Below, one piece after another: positions 5,828 to 52,365 of a stretch of DNA of 64,000 nucleotides (its first letter is position 1; each line of letters starts with the position of its first letter). The position numbers were made by a program, and so were the translations under genes. The notes beneath the pieces are model-generated. The model was not told the DNA's origin. It saw nothing but the letters and a program-made list of their open reading frames with translations, and searched no databases. This DNA is from Effusibacillus pohliae DSM 22757 (GTDB taxonomy: Bacteria > Bacillota > Bacilli > Tumebacillales > Effusibacillaceae). The stretch covers positions 1-64,000 of the forward strand of contig NZ_AQXL01000129.1 in the NCBI RefSeq assembly GCF_000376225.1. Direction: 5' to 3'.

Positions 5828-6621
5828 GAAACGAAGTGTTGAAAAAACCGCTGAAAGTTCGAATCCGTGTGTGGCTGGTTGCGCTGCTTGTATTGGCCAT
5901 CTACGCCTGGTCGCTCTCCGGCATCCCGTTCACCGGCTTGAAAGAAACGGCCGGGGATGTCACCGTGTCGATTTTGCAAGGGCTGTTGCATCCTGACTGG
6001 TCGTACGTGTATATCCCGGAAGGGGAAGATTTGCTGCGCGGATTGCTGGATACGCTGGCGATTTCGGTGCTGGGCACATTTATCTCGGCGATTTTGTGTG
6101 TCCCGTTCGCGTTTGTGGCGGCCAACAATATGAACCGGTTGAAGATCGTGACCGGCCTTGGCAAATTTTTTCTGAGTGTGGTGCGCACCTTTCCGGAAAT
6201 TGTGATGGCCATCCTGTTCATCAAAGCGGTCGGTCCGGGTGCTTATGCCGGGGTGCTGGCGCTTGGCATCCATTCGATCGGCATGCTGGGAAAACTGTTT
6301 TCGGAAGTGATCGAAAACATGGATCTCGGCCCGACGGAAGCGTTGGCCGCCTGCGGTGCCAGCCGGCTGCAGACGCTCTGGTTTGCGGTGATTCCGCAGG
6401 TGCTGCCGGAATTTTTCTCGTTGAGTCTCTACCGGTTCGAAATAAACGTCCGTTCCGCGACGATCCTCGGGATCATCGGGGCGGGCGGCATCGGAACGCC
6501 GCTGATCTTCGCTTTGGAAGCAAGAAGCTGGGACCGGGTGGTGATTATCCTGCTAGGGATTATTGTGATGGTCTCGCTGATCGACCTGATTTCCGGCTAT
6601 ATCCGCAAAAAACTGGTGTAG
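5824..6621 (+). CDS. phnE: Phosphonate ABC transporter permease (second of two)
   Basis: A 265-residue paralogue of the preceding permease, with EAA loop ENMDLGPTEALAACGASRLQ and the same GAGGIG motif. It is probably the second half of the transport channel. It is the last gene of the plus-strand operon. The expected binding protein phnD is not downstream but on the opposite strand about 1 kb away, behind an unrelated deacetylase gene. No C-P lyase genes are in the window, so the transporter may import phosphonates or phosphite for use elsewhere. Confidence 0.92.
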   Translation: MRNEVLKKPLKVRIRVWLVALLVLAIYAWSLSGIPFTGLKETAGDVTVSILQGLLHPDWSYVYIPEGEDLLRGLLDTLAISVLGTFISAILCVPFAFVAANNMNRLKIVTGLGKFFLSVVRTFPEIVMAILFIKAVGPGAYAGVLALGIHSIGMLGKLFSEVIENMDLGPTEALAACGASRLQTLWFAVIPQVLPEFFSLSLYRFEINVRSATILGIIGAGGIGTPLIFALEARSWDRVVIILLGIIVMVSLIDLISGYIRKKLV

Positions 6622-6672
6622 GCGGATTCGTTTATTCTTCTTGAACTTAGACCCTCGGCTCTTATTGACTTG

Positions 6673-7533
6673 TTAACGAGTGTTGGTACTTTTGGCAGTC
6701 GTATATTTTTGTATCTTTTCAAGCAGTTGTTCAACAGTTAGGCCATCTGCCGAAATACGATACACGAGTTTCTGATTGCGGTCATTGATACCTTCATTTG
6801 TGGTTAGGAATACCTTCATGCCAAGCTGGTTGCAGACTTCAAGAATGGTATCGTTATATACACCACCCGGAAAGCACAAAACCCGGTGAGGTTGATGTCC
6901 AAGTTCTTCTTCGAGTCTCTTTTCCGCCAAGGCAAGATCATCATATATTCTTTGCCGGTATTCTTCCTGTGTTTCCAGACGATTTTTTTCCGGAAGAAAA
7001 ATTGGGCTGGCAAAGGTTGTGCTGTGATTAATAAATTCGTGAGAGTCATAAGTGTGATTGTAAAACTCTATTCCGTTCTTCTTCATTTCTCTCATTTGAT
7101 CCCAGGTTAGATGGGGGATTTTTTTCGGGTCAAAGTGATCTGTTGATCCGACAATGACATAATTAGATGCCGAAAGACCGCGTTTCTTCAACTCAGGGTA
7201 AACATATGTGTAAAAACTTTCATACCCATCATCAAATGTCAAAACGACCGCATTTTCGGGGATGCTCTGTTCTCCTTTCACGAAAGACAAATAATCACTC
7301 ATGCGAATAAAGTGAAAACCTTGTTCTCGCATCGTATCAAGATGACGGGTAAGATTCTCAAGCGTAATAGAAGATCCTCTTTGCTCTGGATCAATATGGT
7401 GATACATCAATACAATCACTTGATCTTGATAGTAAACTCGTTTGATAGATCTTGTTTCAATTGCATCTGAGGAACAACTGGTGGAAAAGATTGAAACAAA
7501 AAGCAATGGTACGAAAAAAGTAAAACGGTTCAT
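6673..7533 (-). CDS. Polysaccharide deacetylase family lipoprotein
   Basis: A 286-residue protein with a lipoprotein signal peptide (hydrophobic stretch, then STSC) and a NodB-type deacetylase domain. VVLTFDDGY (about residue 96) holds the metal-binding/catalytic Asp pair, and YNHTYDSHEF matches the zinc-binding His motif, with FPGG near residue 220. These enzymes remove acetyl groups from cell-wall or exopolysaccharide sugars; the IcaB/PgaB-like arrangement is possible. Its base composition is clearly more AT-rich than its neighbours, and it splits phnCEE from phnD. Copies of ACCCTCGG lie at 6651 and 7570 on either side, pointing to insertion. Confidence 0.85.
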   Translation of the reverse strand: MNRFTFFVPLLFVSIFSTSCSSDAIETRSIKRVYYQDQVIVLMYHHIDPEQRGSSITLENLTRHLDTMREQGFHFIRMSDYLSFVKGEQSIPENAVVLTFDDGYESFYTYVYPELKKRGLSASNYVIVGSTDHFDPKKIPHLTWDQMREMKKNGIEFYNHTYDSHEFINHSTTFASPIFLPEKNRLETQEEYRQRIYDDLALAEKRLEEELGHQPHRVLCFPGGVYNDTILEVCNQLGMKVFLTTNEGINDRNQKLVYRISADGLTVEQLLEKIQKYTTAKSTNTR

Positions 7534-12876: not shown

Positions 12877-14790
12877 ATGCTGAAACAGGTTGAATTACGC
12901 ATCGCCAATCTTTTGTTTCGCATCTTGACACAAACGAAACCTGTCGAGCGTCTTCTGCACAAGGTGATGCAACTGGGCGTACCGGTTTTGCAGGCGGAAG
13001 GGGCTTGTTTGTTCGTGGCCGAAAAATGGACCTGTCAGCTTGTTCTCCATTCGAATTCCATCATCGGCACCCATCGGCAAGCGCCTGTTTCCAGCCGGGA
13101 ACTGGCGGAGCTGTGCAATCAGCGCGATTCGTTCTGGGTCGAGCAGGACGGAAACCTGTATATCCCGCTCTATGCCGGTGGGATGCTGCAAGCGGTGCTC
13201 TGTTTTCTCGGGGTATCCGCCGTCCTGCAAGGGAAAACGGTGGCGGTCGCCAATCGGTTGGTCAAACAGTTGGCCGATCTGTACGAATCCAGAAAAATCC
13301 TGCAGGACAAAGACCAGTATCATGCGGCGCTGGTTGACATTTCACAGGCGATTACACAGACTTCCAGTTTCGATGATGTCATCACGCGGGCGATGCGAAT
13401 GGCTTCCGAAGCGGCAGGCGCGGCTTGCGGCATCATGCTGCTGAGCAAGGACGAGCAGTCGCTGGTTCCGGTCTATACATACACGATCAAGCGTTCCGAC
13501 TGCAAGCCGATTTCCTTCCCGCCGCCGCACGGGTTGGACCAAACTTCGTATCTGGCGATTCAACGGCGGAAAGTGATGTTGGTGCGAGACGCGCTGACCG
13601 ATCCTTTCTCTGATCACGAATTTTGCCGACAACATGGAATTGAAAGCTACATGGCGTTGCCATTGGTGATCTTCGACCGCCCGATCGGCGTGCTGTTTGT
13701 CAATTACCGGTACAAGCGTTGTTTTACGGAACTGGAGATCGGCTTTTTCCGGGAGTTGGGGTATCAGATCAGCCATGTCATCCACACGCTGCAGACCCGG
13801 CTTGAGATGCTTGAGACGAAGCATATGCAGGACCGGCTGATCGAGATGATGCGGGAGATGACCAACCGCATCCGGTTGCGCGACGTGCTGCATGACATGG
13901 TGCTGAAAACCTATTTTCTGCTCGACAAGAAAGTCGGAGTTTCGGTTTGGCTGGTGGATGCAGCGCGGGACTGCATCCGCTTGTCCGCCTGGAAAGGCAT
14001 CAAACTGCGGCAGCGTGGCAAAAAGCGGACGGAGTTCTCGCTGTTGGAGGTGGGGAACACGGCCCGGCTGCAGGATCGCTATCTGGAAGTGGAAGGACGG
14101 TCGGAGATGGGCCAATTTTTCCTGCGGGCAGGTGTCGCGCGGTCGCTCGGGACGCCGCTGATGGCGGAAAATGATCTGATCGGCATCCTGTTTCTGCATG
14201 GGCCGTCCGGGCATGAGTGGACCGACCGGGAAAAAGTGACGCTGTCGACGATCGGCATCCACGCCGGGCCGATCATTCGCAACGGCCAGTATATTCAGCT
14301 GCTGGAAAAAGAATCGAAGCTGGACGGCCTGACCAAGGTATACAACCGTCAGCATTTTGAAAAAACGTACCGGGAGTACAGCGCGAAACATGTCGCCCAA
14401 CAGAAACCGTTCTCCGTACTGATGGTCGACATCGACAATTTTAAGCAGATCAACGACCAATACGGCCACACGGCCGGCGATCAGGTGATGCGGCTGGTCG
14501 CCGCCACCTTGCTGCAAGTCACCCGCGGGGCGGATAAAGTGTTCCGCTACGGCGGCGAAGAATTCTGTATCCTGTTGCCGTTCACGGGGAAAAAGCAGGC
14601 GGAACAGGTGGCGGAACGGATCCGCGCTTCAATCGAACGATCGGAGATCGACCCGCCCGTTACGGTCTCAATCGGGGTCGCCGCCTTCCCGGAGAACTCC
14701 GACGATCCGAAGCAGGTGCTGGAGCTGGCCGACCTCGCCTTGTATGAAGCGAAAAGCAAAGGCAAAAACCGGGTGATCGGTGCGGTGTAA
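12877..14790 (+). CDS. GAF-domain diguanylate cyclase
   Basis: A 637-residue cytosolic protein. There are about three GAF-like sensory segments (roughly residues 20-150, 165-310 and 330-475) and a C-terminal GGDEF domain (about 485-637). The catalytic motif is RYGGEEF near residue 558, an active variant, and RGAD five residues upstream is the canonical product-inhibition (I) site. It should make cyclic di-GMP from GTP, controlled by ligand or redox sensing in the GAF domains. No membrane segment is visible. GAGGGAATTCGC precedes the ATG. The gene stands alone; a decayed region follows. Confidence 0.9.
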
Positions 14791-46673: not shown

Positions 46674-47753
46674 ATGGTGGATGTGAGTTACAGGGAAGCG
46701 GCCGAAGTCGGCAAGCGGCTGCTCGCGTGGTACAACGAGGCGAAACGCGACCTGCCGTGGCGCAGGACAAGCGATCCTTATAAAATCTGGGTATCGGAAG
46801 TGATGCTCCAGCAAACCCGTGTGGAGACGGTGATTCCCTATTGGAATCGGTTTATCGAACGGTTTCCGACGGTGGAGGCGCTGGCGGATGCACCGGAAGA
46901 GGAAGTATTGAAACTGTGGGAAGGACTCGGCTATTATTCGCGGGCACGCAACCTGCAGGCGGCTGTGCGCGAAGTGAAAGCGAAATATGGCGGCCGGGTG
47001 CCGGACAAGCAGGAGGAGATGTTGGCCCTCCCTGGCGTCGGGCGATATACATCTGGCGCGGTGCTGTCGATCGCCTACAATGTGCCGGTGCCAGCGGTGG
47101 ATGGCAATGTGTTTCGCGTGCTGTCGCGGATTTTCCTGATCGAAGATGATGTATCGAAGCCTGCTGCCCGCAAGAAGTTTGAAGCGCTGGCCGAGTTTCT
47201 GATTCCGCCGGGGGAGGCGTCCAATTTTAACCAGTCGTTGATGGAGTTGGGGGCGCGGGTGTGCATGCCGAAACATCCTCGATGCGAACGCTGCCCCGTG
47301 CACGACATGTGCCGCGCATACAAGGAAGGGGTGCAGGAAGATCTGCCGGTCAAAGGCAAGAAAAAGCCGCCTCGTCCGATTGACATCGCGACCGGGATCG
47401 TCTGGAATGCCGGCCGTGTGCTGATCACGCGCCGCCCGCCGCAAGGGCTGTTGGCGGGACTGTGGGAGTTTCCTGGCGGGGAGGTGGCCGGCGGCGAGTC
47501 GCATAAAGCGGCCCTTCAACGCATTTTCGCCGAAAAATGGAACCTGTCCGTCAGGGTACAGTCCCATTTTGCCAATGTGCAGCATACGTTTAGCCACATC
47601 CGCTGGAATTTGCAGGCTTATACATGTGAAGCGAACGGCGGGGCAGCTGCAGAAGCGGAAGATACGCGCTGGGTGCAGGTTTGGCAGTTGGCCGATTTTC
47701 CGATGCCGGTCGCCCATCAGAAGCTGGCGAAAGCGCTGGCCGGATTGGTCTAG
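46674..47753 (+). CDS. mutY: A/G-specific adenine DNA glycosylase
   Basis: A 359-residue repair enzyme that removes adenine mispaired with 8-oxoguanine. VSEVMLQQTRVETVI holds the catalytic Glu, ALPGVGRYTSGAV is the helix-hairpin-helix, the catalytic Asp is in VPAVDGNVFRVL, and CMPKHPRCERCPVHDMC binds the iron-sulfur cluster. The C-terminal Nudix-like domain (about 225-359) reads 8-oxoG. The ribosome site AGAAAGGGG lies within a strong hairpin, which may limit translation. The next gene starts 13 bases later. Confidence 0.95.
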   Translation: MVDVSYREAAEVGKRLLAWYNEAKRDLPWRRTSDPYKIWVSEVMLQQTRVETVIPYWNRFIERFPTVEALADAPEEEVLKLWEGLGYYSRARNLQAAVREVKAKYGGRVPDKQEEMLALPGVGRYTSGAVLSIAYNVPVPAVDGNVFRVLSRIFLIEDDVSKPAARKKFEALAEFLIPPGEASNFNQSLMELGARVCMPKHPRCERCPVHDMCRAYKEGVQEDLPVKGKKKPPRPIDIATGIVWNAGRVLITRRPPQGLLAGLWEFPGGEVAGGESHKAALQRIFAEKWNLSVRVQSHFANVQHTFSHIRWNLQAYTCEANGGAAAEAEDTRWVQVWQLADFPMPVAHQKLAKALAGLV

Positions 47754-47765
47754 GGAGGTTTTTGA

Positions 47766-48077
47766 ATGGGACAGGTTCGGGGATTTTTTGAATATAAAAT
47801 TTTGCCGGAAAAACGGGCGGCCTATCTGCGGTGGTCGCCGCAGTGGAAACAGCTGATGCGGGCGGCGGGGCTTGACGATTTCGCTGTGCTGGAAAGCAAT
47901 CAACGGCCGAACCAGTTTCTTGAGACGTTTACCGTCGAATCGATCGGCCAGTATGAGTCAATCGTGCAGGGGCTTACCCAACAAGCCGCCTATCGGGAGC
48001 TGCGGGCGCGTCTGGACGAGCTGCTGGAGGGCGGTCGCGAGCGCATGAAAATATGGTTTTTTACAGAAATGTGTTAA
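47766..48077 (+). CDS. Dimeric alpha/beta-barrel-like small protein
   Basis: A 103-residue protein (FFEYKILPEKRAAYLRW, ETFTVESIGQYESIV, ARLDELLEGG, closing IWFFTEMC). The size and strand-helix pattern suggest a ferredoxin-like monooxygenase/NIPSNAP fold, but no catalytic residues can be named. AGGGAGGTTTTTGA precedes the ATG. It follows mutY by 13 bases and precedes the selenoprotein candidate by 24 bases. Confidence 0.65.
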   Translation: MGQVRGFFEYKILPEKRAAYLRWSPQWKQLMRAAGLDDFAVLESNQRPNQFLETFTVESIGQYESIVQGLTQQAAYRELRARLDELLEGGRERMKIWFFTEMC

Positions 48078-48100
48078 AATAGACATACGGAGGAGATGGC

Positions 48101-48391
48101 ATGATTCAGATCAGCGACCTGGCGGTCGAGAAGATCAGGCAGATTCAACAGGAGCAGAATGAGGAGCACCTCTGCATCCGGATTAAGGTCGCTCCCGGAT
48201 GAGGCGGTTTTCGGTATTTGCTGGCTCTGGATGAGCCACAACCGCACGACCGGCAGTTTGAAGTGAAGGGGCTGCGGTTCGTCCTGGATCCGTTTGCCGC
48301 TTCCCACATCAGTCAGGTTGAGATCGAGTATGATGAATTCGAGGATGATTTTACGGTCCGCGTTCCGGATGGGCCGCAATCGTCCTGTTGA
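48101..48391 (+). CDS. HesB/IscA-like selenoprotein candidate 1 (Sec at codon 34, in-frame TGA)
   Basis: From ATG 48101 (ACGGAGGAGATGGC before it) the frame reads MIQISDLAVEKIRQIQQEQ, then LCIRIKVAPG, TGA at 48200-48202, GGFRYLLALDEPQ, and runs open for 62 more codons to TGA 48389, ending Ser-Ser-Cys. The whole is a 96-residue HesB/A-type protein. The TGA falls where the family has its conserved Cys (the GGCSGF-type motif), and the LALDEP motif marks the HesB-related (seleno)protein subgroup known from Bacillota. A SECIS-like stem-loop follows the TGA. The C-terminal CGC motif of true IscA is absent. Function unknown; redox or metal binding through Sec is inferred. A pseudogene is the alternative, made unlikely by a second case at 52057. 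Confidence 0.82.
48204..48245 (+). promoter_or_regulatory. Candidate SECIS element 1
   Basis: Directly after the TGA, GCGGTT pairs with AACCGC (48240-48245) and, inside, GGCTC pairs with GAGCC around the loop TGGAT. The loop starts 25 bases after the TGA and has G at its second position, as expected for bacterial SECIS elements recognised by SelB. Confidence 0.65.
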
Positions 48392-48405
48392 TTGGCGGAG
48401 GGCTT

Positions 48406-48786
48406 ATGTCTGCAGAACAAACGGTCAATTTTACAGTCCGAAAAATGGAACGGTGCGTATGCGCCAGTTTTGTCTACGGAGAGGATTCTTTCAACTCGCC
48501 GTACTTTACGGTGTATTTTATCGTCAATAACTCCGGCATCATCGCCGTGTATGACAAGTCGACGCCCTCTGGCACCGCGACCGCAGGCGGCGGCGAAGTG
48601 TATCTGGACCAGTTGAAAAGTGCCGGCATGGAATTGAAAAAAGGGCAGGACAAGTACGAAGTGCTGGCCTATATTTACGACGAATTGGGCCGGATCGGCG
48701 AGAAGTTGCAAAAGGAAGGGCGGCCGCTGCTCGATTCGGATATTTCCAAGCTGCTGACGAAGCTTGGTTCGCGGTTTAAAGCGTAG
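48406..48786 (+). CDS. Uncharacterised protein of 126 residues
   Basis: Not recognised. It opens with SAEQTVNFTVRKMERCVCASFVYG, contains a beta-rich middle (YFTVYFIVNNSGIIAVYDKS) and ends with a helical basic region (LLTKLGSRFKA). GGCGGAGGGCTT precedes ATG 48406, 14 bases after the selenoprotein stop, so the two are probably coexpressed. No membrane segment. Confidence 0.75.
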   Translation: MSAEQTVNFTVRKMERCVCASFVYGEDSFNSPYFTVYFIVNNSGIIAVYDKSTPSGTATAGGGEVYLDQLKSAGMELKKGQDKYEVLAYIYDELGRIGEKLQKEGRPLLDSDISKLLTKLGSRFKA

Positions 48787-52056: not shown

Positions 52057-52365
52057 GTGATCACATTGACGGAACGGGCGCGGGAAAAATTGGCCGAGTG
52101 GACGAGCGACGAACAGCCGGACGTGTATATACGGCTGATGATGGTGATGGAAGGCGGCTGAGGGGCGACGATGACGTACGATCTTGCTCTGGACGAGCCG
52201 AGAAAGCAGGATGACGTGTATTCGTTCGGCAATGTGCACGTACTGGTGGACAAATCGTCGCAAGTTTATATGGAGGAAAATCTGACGATCGATTATGACG
52301 AGTCGATCGGAGCGTATCGGTTGAAAAGCCCGGAACGGGTGATACCGGGCGTGTTTTATGTGTAG
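52057..52365 (+). CDS. HesB/IscA-like selenoprotein candidate 2 (Sec at codon 35, in-frame TGA)
   Basis: From GTG 52057 (GGGGTGAG before it) the frame reads ITLTERAREKLAEW, then YIRLMMVMEGG, TGA at 52159-52161, GATMTYDLALDEPRKQDD, and stays open to TAG 52363. The result is a 102-residue HesB-like protein. The TGA is in the same place as in the 48101 gene, before the shared LALDEP motif. The protein contains no cysteine, so the Sec would be its only strong metal or redox ligand. A stem-loop of the same shape follows. Without Sec insertion only a 34-residue stub would be made. A frame opening at ATG 52171 would give just the C-terminal part and has no ribosome site. Confidence 0.82.
52182..52203 (+). 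promoter_or_regulatory. Candidate SECIS element 2
   Basis: GCTC (52186-52189) pairs with GAGC (52195-52198) around the loop TGGAC; after one bulged C, TCTT pairs with GAGA. The loop starts 28 bases after the TGA and again has G at its second position. Confidence 0.6.

What the first reader, a model, noticed from the sequence alone, without database searches (positions are those of the whole stretch)
48101..48391. HesB-like selenoprotein hidden by an in-frame TGA
The frame has a good ribosome site, reads 33 codons of HesB/IscA-type sequence, meets TGA at 48200-48202, then continues 62 codons with unbroken family similarity (GGFRYLLALDEPQ). The TGA sits precisely where the family has its conserved Cys. 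HesB-related selenoproteins are an established but poorly understood group, and functional data are scarce. Standard gene calling would lose this gene.
Basis: partly seen in the sequence, partly recalled or inferred. Interest (0 to 1): 0.88.

Follow-up and report, generated by a model that had tools for sequence, protein, structure and literature searches.

The report
Selenium version of iron-sulfur carrier protein
A small gene that standard annotation would cut in two codes for a protein shaped like the carriers that deliver iron-sulfur clusters, with selenocysteine predicted in place of the key cysteine; the same genome holds three more such genes, including its only ordinary cluster carrier.

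Summary
48101-48388 is an IscA/HesB-fold frame whose TGA (48200-48202) sits on the family's first cysteine. The genome has selA, selB, selD and tRNA-Sec. Relatives keep the TGA (15 of 15 subfamily genes read), keep purifying selection downstream, and keep a hairpin 25 nt after the TGA with compensatory changes; Cys-ErpA genes lack it. In 121 genomes of the class, all 22 with listed TGA-bearing HesB genes are among the 40 with selA. The window holds a second such gene (52057-52365) and the genome two more: 4 of its 5 PF01521 proteins have TGA at that codon, among them its only ErpA/SufA-type carrier, which passes NCBI's ErpA cut-off. Selenium is thus a predicted part of core Fe-S delivery. The window gene falls well below the cut-offs of both curated HesB-selenoprotein models (TIGR01911, NF038090): a divergent subfamily with Sec34 plus one invariant C-terminal Cys. 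HesB selenoproteins as such are long known; the multiplicity and the Sec-ErpA are the new part. Sec insertion and function are untested; best guess is Fe or Fe-S binding through Sec34/Cys96, with selenol redox chemistry as close rival.

The parts
48089..48095 (+). ribosome-binding site GGAGGAG of the HesB-like gene
   Evidence: sequence; 5 nt before the ATG
48101..48391 (+). HesB/IscA-like selenoprotein gene (subfamily 'B'), 96 aa with Sec34, stop TGA at 48389-48391
   Evidence: relatives
48200..48202 (+). TGA codon read as selenocysteine, at the position of the first conserved Cys of A-type carriers
   Evidence: conserved in 15 of 15 subfamily genes
48222..48238 (+). bSECIS hairpin: stem 48222-48227 / 48233-48238 (6 bp), loop UGGAU 48228-48232, 25 nt after the UGA
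   Evidence: covariation over the Sec genes; control
48386..48388 (+). codon of Cys96, the last residue, invariant in the subfamily; proposed partner of Sec34
52057..52365 (+). second HesB-like selenoprotein gene (subfamily 'C'), start GTG 52057 inferred, no C-terminal Cys
   Evidence: 11 of 11 genes of the subfamily read, this one included, have TGA here
52159..52161 (+). TGA codon read as selenocysteine in the second gene
52186..52198 (+). weak bSECIS-like hairpin of the second gene: 4-bp stem, loop UGGAC, 28 nt after the UGA; not in the minimum-energy fold of this copy
46674..47753 (+). mutY, upstream neighbour kept in other genomes
48388..48786 (+). uncharacterised downstream neighbour (listed frame overlaps the gene's stop) kept beside it in several relatives

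Best explanation
48101-48391 encodes a small A-type-carrier-fold selenoprotein. SelB with Sec-tRNA reads UGA 48200-48202 as selenocysteine, guided by the hairpin at 48222-48238; the second UGA (48389) ends translation. Sec takes the place of the first cluster-ligand Cys of IscA/ErpA, and the two Cys of the usual C-terminal CGC motif are reduced to one invariant terminal Cys. Shown by comparison: reading through UGA, its place, the hairpin, the machinery. Inferred: that the inserted residue is Sec and not Cys. Most likely mechanism, a guess (about 0.45): Sec34 and Cys96, across a dimer, bind iron or an Fe-S cluster for delivery to client proteins, the selenol giving faster ligand exchange or redox release. 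The genome's only ErpA-type carrier carries the same Cys-to-Sec change, which links the set to Fe-S delivery. The confidence below is for the selenoprotein part, not for the function.
For: Machinery in own genome: selA 629 bits, selD 417, selB 402 with a SelB winged-helix domain, tRNA-Sec 68.5 bits with TCA anticodon. selA in 14 of 14 genomes of the order. In 121 genomes of the class 22 show listed HesB matches with a TGA in the core; all 22 are among the 40 with selA (chance 1.5e-13; 13 of 13 outside the order, 6e-9; relatedness not corrected). Every TGA match fetched from the class scan (23, 1) has it at the same Cys column. Hairpin in 39 distinct Sec rows: 94.4% of cells paired, 4 of 6 pairs with changes on both sides, covariation 0.270 against 0.164 shuffled, 0 of 500; 10 Cys-ErpA rows 48.3% paired and no covariation. 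Spacing of 25 or 28 nt and the loop G fit the published bSECIS model (PMC13188914, passages). Fold search: IscA/SufA structures, probability 1.0. Sec-ErpA on C108 scores 130.5 bits against the ErpA cut-off of 117.
Against: No protein evidence of Sec. The hairpin of the window gene is only modestly stronger than synonymous shuffles (z -1.45, p 0.08), and those of Sec-ErpA (z 0.26) and gene C (z -0.33) in this genome are not. The window gene lacks the CGC ligand pair of true carriers, and gene C has Sec as its only candidate ligand, so binding of an Fe-S cluster is not shown. The C-terminal residues of the model are of low confidence (pLDDT 46), so Sec34-Cys96 contact could not be judged. A disruption mutant of the M. 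maripaludis HesB-like selenoprotein still fixed nitrogen, function unclear (PMC11097638, passages).
Confidence: 0.9

Rival explanations
1. Same selenoprotein, but the function is selenol redox chemistry: Sec34 and the C-terminal Cys form a selenenyl-sulfide and act on peroxide, disulfides or persulfides, not on Fe-S clusters.
For: Only two chalcogen residues (Sec and one terminal Cys) are invariant in subfamily B. Subfamily D lies just upstream of a TlpA-like thioredoxin gene and near rhodanese/metallo-beta-lactamase and TusA-like sulfur genes (the last two labels are read from the sequence, not from a call). Sec-ErpA lies next to a Sec peroxiredoxin frame.
Against: The fold is a carrier fold, not a thiol oxidoreductase; no CxxC or UxxC motif; the mutY neighbourhood of B is not a redox operon.
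Confidence: 0.35
2. UGA is decoded as Cys or Trp by another tRNA, or Cys replaces Sec when selenium is short; the protein is a plain Cys (or Trp) carrier.
For: Recalled: UGA ambiguity is known in some bacteria. No protein data here.
Against: Full Sec machinery in the genome, hairpin covariation and selA co-occurrence all point to SelB-dependent decoding; UGA serves as the stop of the same gene.
Confidence: 0.06
3. The TGA is a real stop: the gene is a pseudogene or makes a 33-residue fragment.
For: Subfamily C is broken in G002 and absent from its locus in G001, and G004 has a truncated extra copy, so such genes can decay.
Against: TGA, not TAA or TAG, at the same codon across several families of the class; pN<pS downstream in 109 of 109 pairs compared.
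Confidence: 0.03

Closest known systems
HesB-like selenoproteins, TIGR01911 (tables of PMC13188914 and PMC9312934, passages)
   Same: PF01521 fold, Sec at the conserved Cys, short C-terminus
   Different: window gene scores 29.1 bits against a cut-off of 66.35; PMC13188914 lists the motif as UxGP, here UGGF (UGGP in some orthologues)
NF038090 IscA_HesB_Se (NCBIfam)
   Same: a TGA-bearing HesB gene of another family of the class (G043) passes its cut-off (90.3 against 85)
   Different: window genes B (46.7) and C (49.1) and genome gene D (56.3) do not
A-type carriers ErpA/SufA/IscA
   Same: fold; Sec34 aligned with their first ligand Cys; the genome's own ErpA has the same swap
   Different: no C-terminal CGC pair in B, C and D
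YneR-type HesB proteins (Cys; C131 in this genome; name recalled, and in the title of hit 9a4q)
   Same: short PF01521 domain
   Different: Cys, distinct GGCSTVQSGFS motif

Membership tests
PF01521 Fe-S_biosyn | score over gathering cut-off | tested here: met
   35 against 26.3 bits
TIGR01911 HesB_rel_seleno | score over curated cut-off | tested here: not met
   29.1 against 66.35 bits
NF038090 IscA_HesB_Se | score over curated cut-off | tested here: not met
   46.7 against 85 bits
Selenoprotein | in-frame UGA at a Cys position with conserved downstream frame | tested here: met
Selenoprotein | bSECIS: loop of 3-9 nt with G in its first two positions, stem of 4 bp or more, 16-37 nt after UGA (PMC13188914) | tested here: met
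   loop UGGAU, 6 bp, 25 nt; covariation; single-window hit not above chance
Selenoprotein | selA, selB, selC, selD in the genome | tested here: met
Selenoprotein | selenium in the protein | not testable with these tools
   needs 75Se or mass spectrometry
A-type carrier sensu stricto (ErpA/SufA/IscA) | first ligand Cys plus C-terminal CGC pair (recalled) | tested here: not met
   B has Sec34 and one terminal Cys; C has Sec only; the genome's ErpA (C108) keeps CGC with Sec first
A-type carrier sensu stricto (ErpA/SufA/IscA) | binds and transfers Fe-S clusters | not testable with these tools
   biochemistry needed

The most novel reading that the evidence does not exclude
In this genus the housekeeping A-type carrier itself is a selenoprotein and works beside three further Sec-bearing carrier-fold paralogues, so that delivery of iron-sulfur clusters in a bacterium that grows in air depends on selenium and passes through Fe-Se-ligated intermediates.
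Probability: 0.3. Interest if true: 0.88.

Novelty: new variant of a known kind. Interest (0 to 1): 0.62.

Why it matters
HesB selenoproteins have been listed since 2005 without a function. A 2006 survey counted 11 with no Cys-to-Sec event, and the itemised selenoproteomes in the passages I saw name one per genome (PMC1794560). Here relatives of the window's genome, one of them the culturable strain skT53, carry three or four kinds, and a canonical ErpA exists as Sec (3 genomes) and as Cys (1 genome, plus a second copy in one Sec genome) within one genus: a ready Sec/Cys comparison that makes the role of selenium in this fold testable. It also warns that current annotation models miss these genes.

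Tried and rejected
Rfam gathering search and ARAGORN on the window found nothing. A genome-contig scan with the window protein gave one ordinary Cys carrier from a Nitrospiria MAG. Synonymous-codon shuffles of single hairpins were weak (11 of 49 Sec genes at p<=0.05, 0 of 11 Cys), so I relied on covariation. A chance scan showed that the hairpin motif alone is not diagnostic in this window. A tree of 12 ErpA-type proteins could not tell gain from loss of Sec. Rows dropped: the 3 Sec-ErpA genes (6-nt loop, other register) from the covariation count; gene L113 (G081); B and C of G006 and gene E from the selection test. The class list was cut by the tool, so 22 is a lower bound. 'BshA', 'ABM' and 'FadR' were my own labels; Pfam says only glycosyltransferase for the first and GntR/FCD for the last.

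Full report
WHAT IS THERE. The frame at 48101-48391 is as described: GGAGGAG, ATG, 33 codons, TGA at 48200-48202, 62 codons, stop TGA. Read through, it is a PF01521 protein (35 bits, cut-off 26.3). Position 34 falls on the Cys of the GCSGF motif in the best solved relative, 1nwb (E 6e-16). A single-sequence AlphaFold2 model (pLDDT 70.8, pTM 0.58) matches E. coli IscA and SufA and the cluster-bound IscA 1x0g at probability 1.0.

A SECOND ONE. 52171-52365 matched the C-terminal half of PF01521. Upstream in frame is another TGA (52159-52161), with the N-terminal half before it. I infer the start GTG 52057. This gene is not in the finding.

THE GENOME. PF01521 finds five proteins in the window's genome (3.36 Mb, 135 contigs, 99.85% complete). 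Read frame by frame, four have TGA at the Cys codon: B (48101), C (52057), D (contig C117) and A (contig C108). The fifth (C131) has Cys. A ends in CGCGSSF and scores 130.5 bits against the NCBI ErpA cut-off of 117; it is the only protein of that type found. The genome has selA (629 bits), selD (417 bits, with its own in-frame TGA), selB (402 bits, with SelB-wing_3) and tRNA-Sec (68.5 bits, TCA anticodon).

WHICH ORGANISM. The single contig of relative G001 is 3,454,394 bases, exactly the length given for Effusibacillus sp. skT53 (PMC8297450, abstract in the listing). The genus is therefore taken as Effusibacillus. The window's G+C of 54.8% is near the 55.1% given for E. pohliae (PMC8502169, passages); the species is not proven. 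The same table lists aerobic growth for the species of the genus, with anaerobic growth in some.

RELATIVES. In the order (14 genomes), 13 have at least one HesB frame with TGA at that codon (sequences); G005 had no PF01521 match. selA is in 14 of 14. Subfamily B: 15 of 15 genes read have TGA there and end in Cys (this count includes the close variant 'B2' of four genomes). Subfamily C: 11 of 11 read have TGA and no C-terminal Cys. D: 5 of 5 have TGA and a terminal Cys. A (ErpA): TGA in G000, G001 and G002; Cys in a second copy of G001, in G003 and in the other genomes of the order that have it. Eleven Cys-type matches from the class scan that I read are all ordinary carriers with the CGC motif, so no Cys form of B was seen among them.

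CO-OCCURRENCE. In 121 genomes of the class, the listed rows show TGA inside the HesB core in 22 (list cut by the tool); all 22 are among the 40 with selA. Chance is 1.5e-13; outside the own order it is 13 of 13 within 31 of 112, 6e-9. Relatedness is not corrected for. In 149 genomes of the phylum, TGA-bearing HesB matches are common, mostly one per genome: the kind is widespread and known.

RNA SIGNAL. In the Sec genes a hairpin with loop UGGAN lies 25 nt (28 nt in C) after UGA. Over 39 distinct rows, 94.4% of cells pair, and 4 of 6 pairs show changes on both sides (13 cells against 3.0 in shuffles, 0 of 500). Ten Cys-ErpA rows pair in 48.3% with no covariation. One change is telling. The stem pair G-C/A-U ties Ala/Thr before the loop to Pro/Ser after it: Thr occurs with Ser (5) or Leu (1) and never with Pro, while Ala goes with Pro (23), Ser (8) or Thr (2) (46 genes). 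The RNA seems to steer the protein. The Sec-ErpA genes use a different stem (GGCAC/GUGCC, 6-nt loop). The Cys-ErpA of G003 keeps that stem but for one mismatch, either a remnant or a preadaptation. Weak points: the single hairpin in this window is not above chance, and in gene C of this genome it is only 4 bp.

SELECTION. Downstream of the TGA pN<pS in 109 of 109 within-subfamily pairs (B 45, C 45, D 10, B2 6, A 3), at ratios like those upstream. Three genes of G006 were not in this test.

NEIGHBOURS. B lies between mutY (with a small frame between) and an uncharacterised gene, with a BI-1-like gene and a GntR/FCD regulator beyond; the order is largely kept in other genomes. C lies beside fabI. 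C is broken right after its Sec codon in G002 and missing in G001, so it is dispensable.

MECHANISM. Shown by comparison: UGA is read through at a Cys site, in genomes with the Sec machinery, ahead of a conserved hairpin. Inferred: the residue is Sec. Guess: Sec34 and Cys96 bind iron or a cluster in a dimer, as a slimmed A-type carrier (about 0.45), against selenol redox (about 0.35) or metal/persulfide binding (the rest). The strongest hint for Fe-S is that the genome's ErpA has the same swap. In E. coli these carriers are needed to mature IspG/H, and the same paper names Firmicutes among organisms with a single one (PMC2682760, passages).

NOVELTY. HesB selenoproteins are in print since at least 2005 (PMC1242214, passages), with 11 counted in 2006, 2 Sec-to-Cys events and no Cys-to-Sec (PMC1794560, passages); function unclear in 2024 (PMC11097638, passages). 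I found nothing on Sec in ErpA/SufA/IscA of bacteria or on selenoproteins of these bacilli in the listings of five searches of open papers, of which I opened only PMC2682760 and PMC11097638; subscription papers are not covered. I file it as a new variant of a known kind.

Noticed in passing
L128 about 6266-6740 (-), own genome contig C108: A peroxiredoxin (BCP/PrxQ-like, name from the motif) frame with in-frame TGA at the TPGCT cysteine lies directly upstream of the Sec-ErpA gene; in G004 and G006 the same neighbours are both Cys forms.
   Followed up: partly
L023, own genome contig C135: selD itself has an in-frame TGA (AGUGCKIG), next to selA.
   Followed up: yes
48388-48786: Uncharacterised 132-aa protein, no Pfam or NCBIfam match, kept beside the HesB gene in G002, G007, G009, G010, G011 and (partial, contig end) G003.
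   Followed up: partly
L127 4265-5977 (-), own genome contig C117: The D-type Sec HesB gene sits just upstream of a TlpA-like thioredoxin and near rhodanese-like, TusA-like and permease-like genes.
   Followed up: partly
L119 about 13906-14004 and L114 4407-5000: Gene C is broken after its Sec codon in G002 and replaced by short repeats in G001.
   Followed up: no
47766-48077: Small protein between mutY and the HesB gene with a weak match to the C-terminal part of MFS_3.
   Followed up: no
L006, own genome contig C123: selB lies on another contig than selA-selD, and tRNA-Sec on a third.
   Followed up: no
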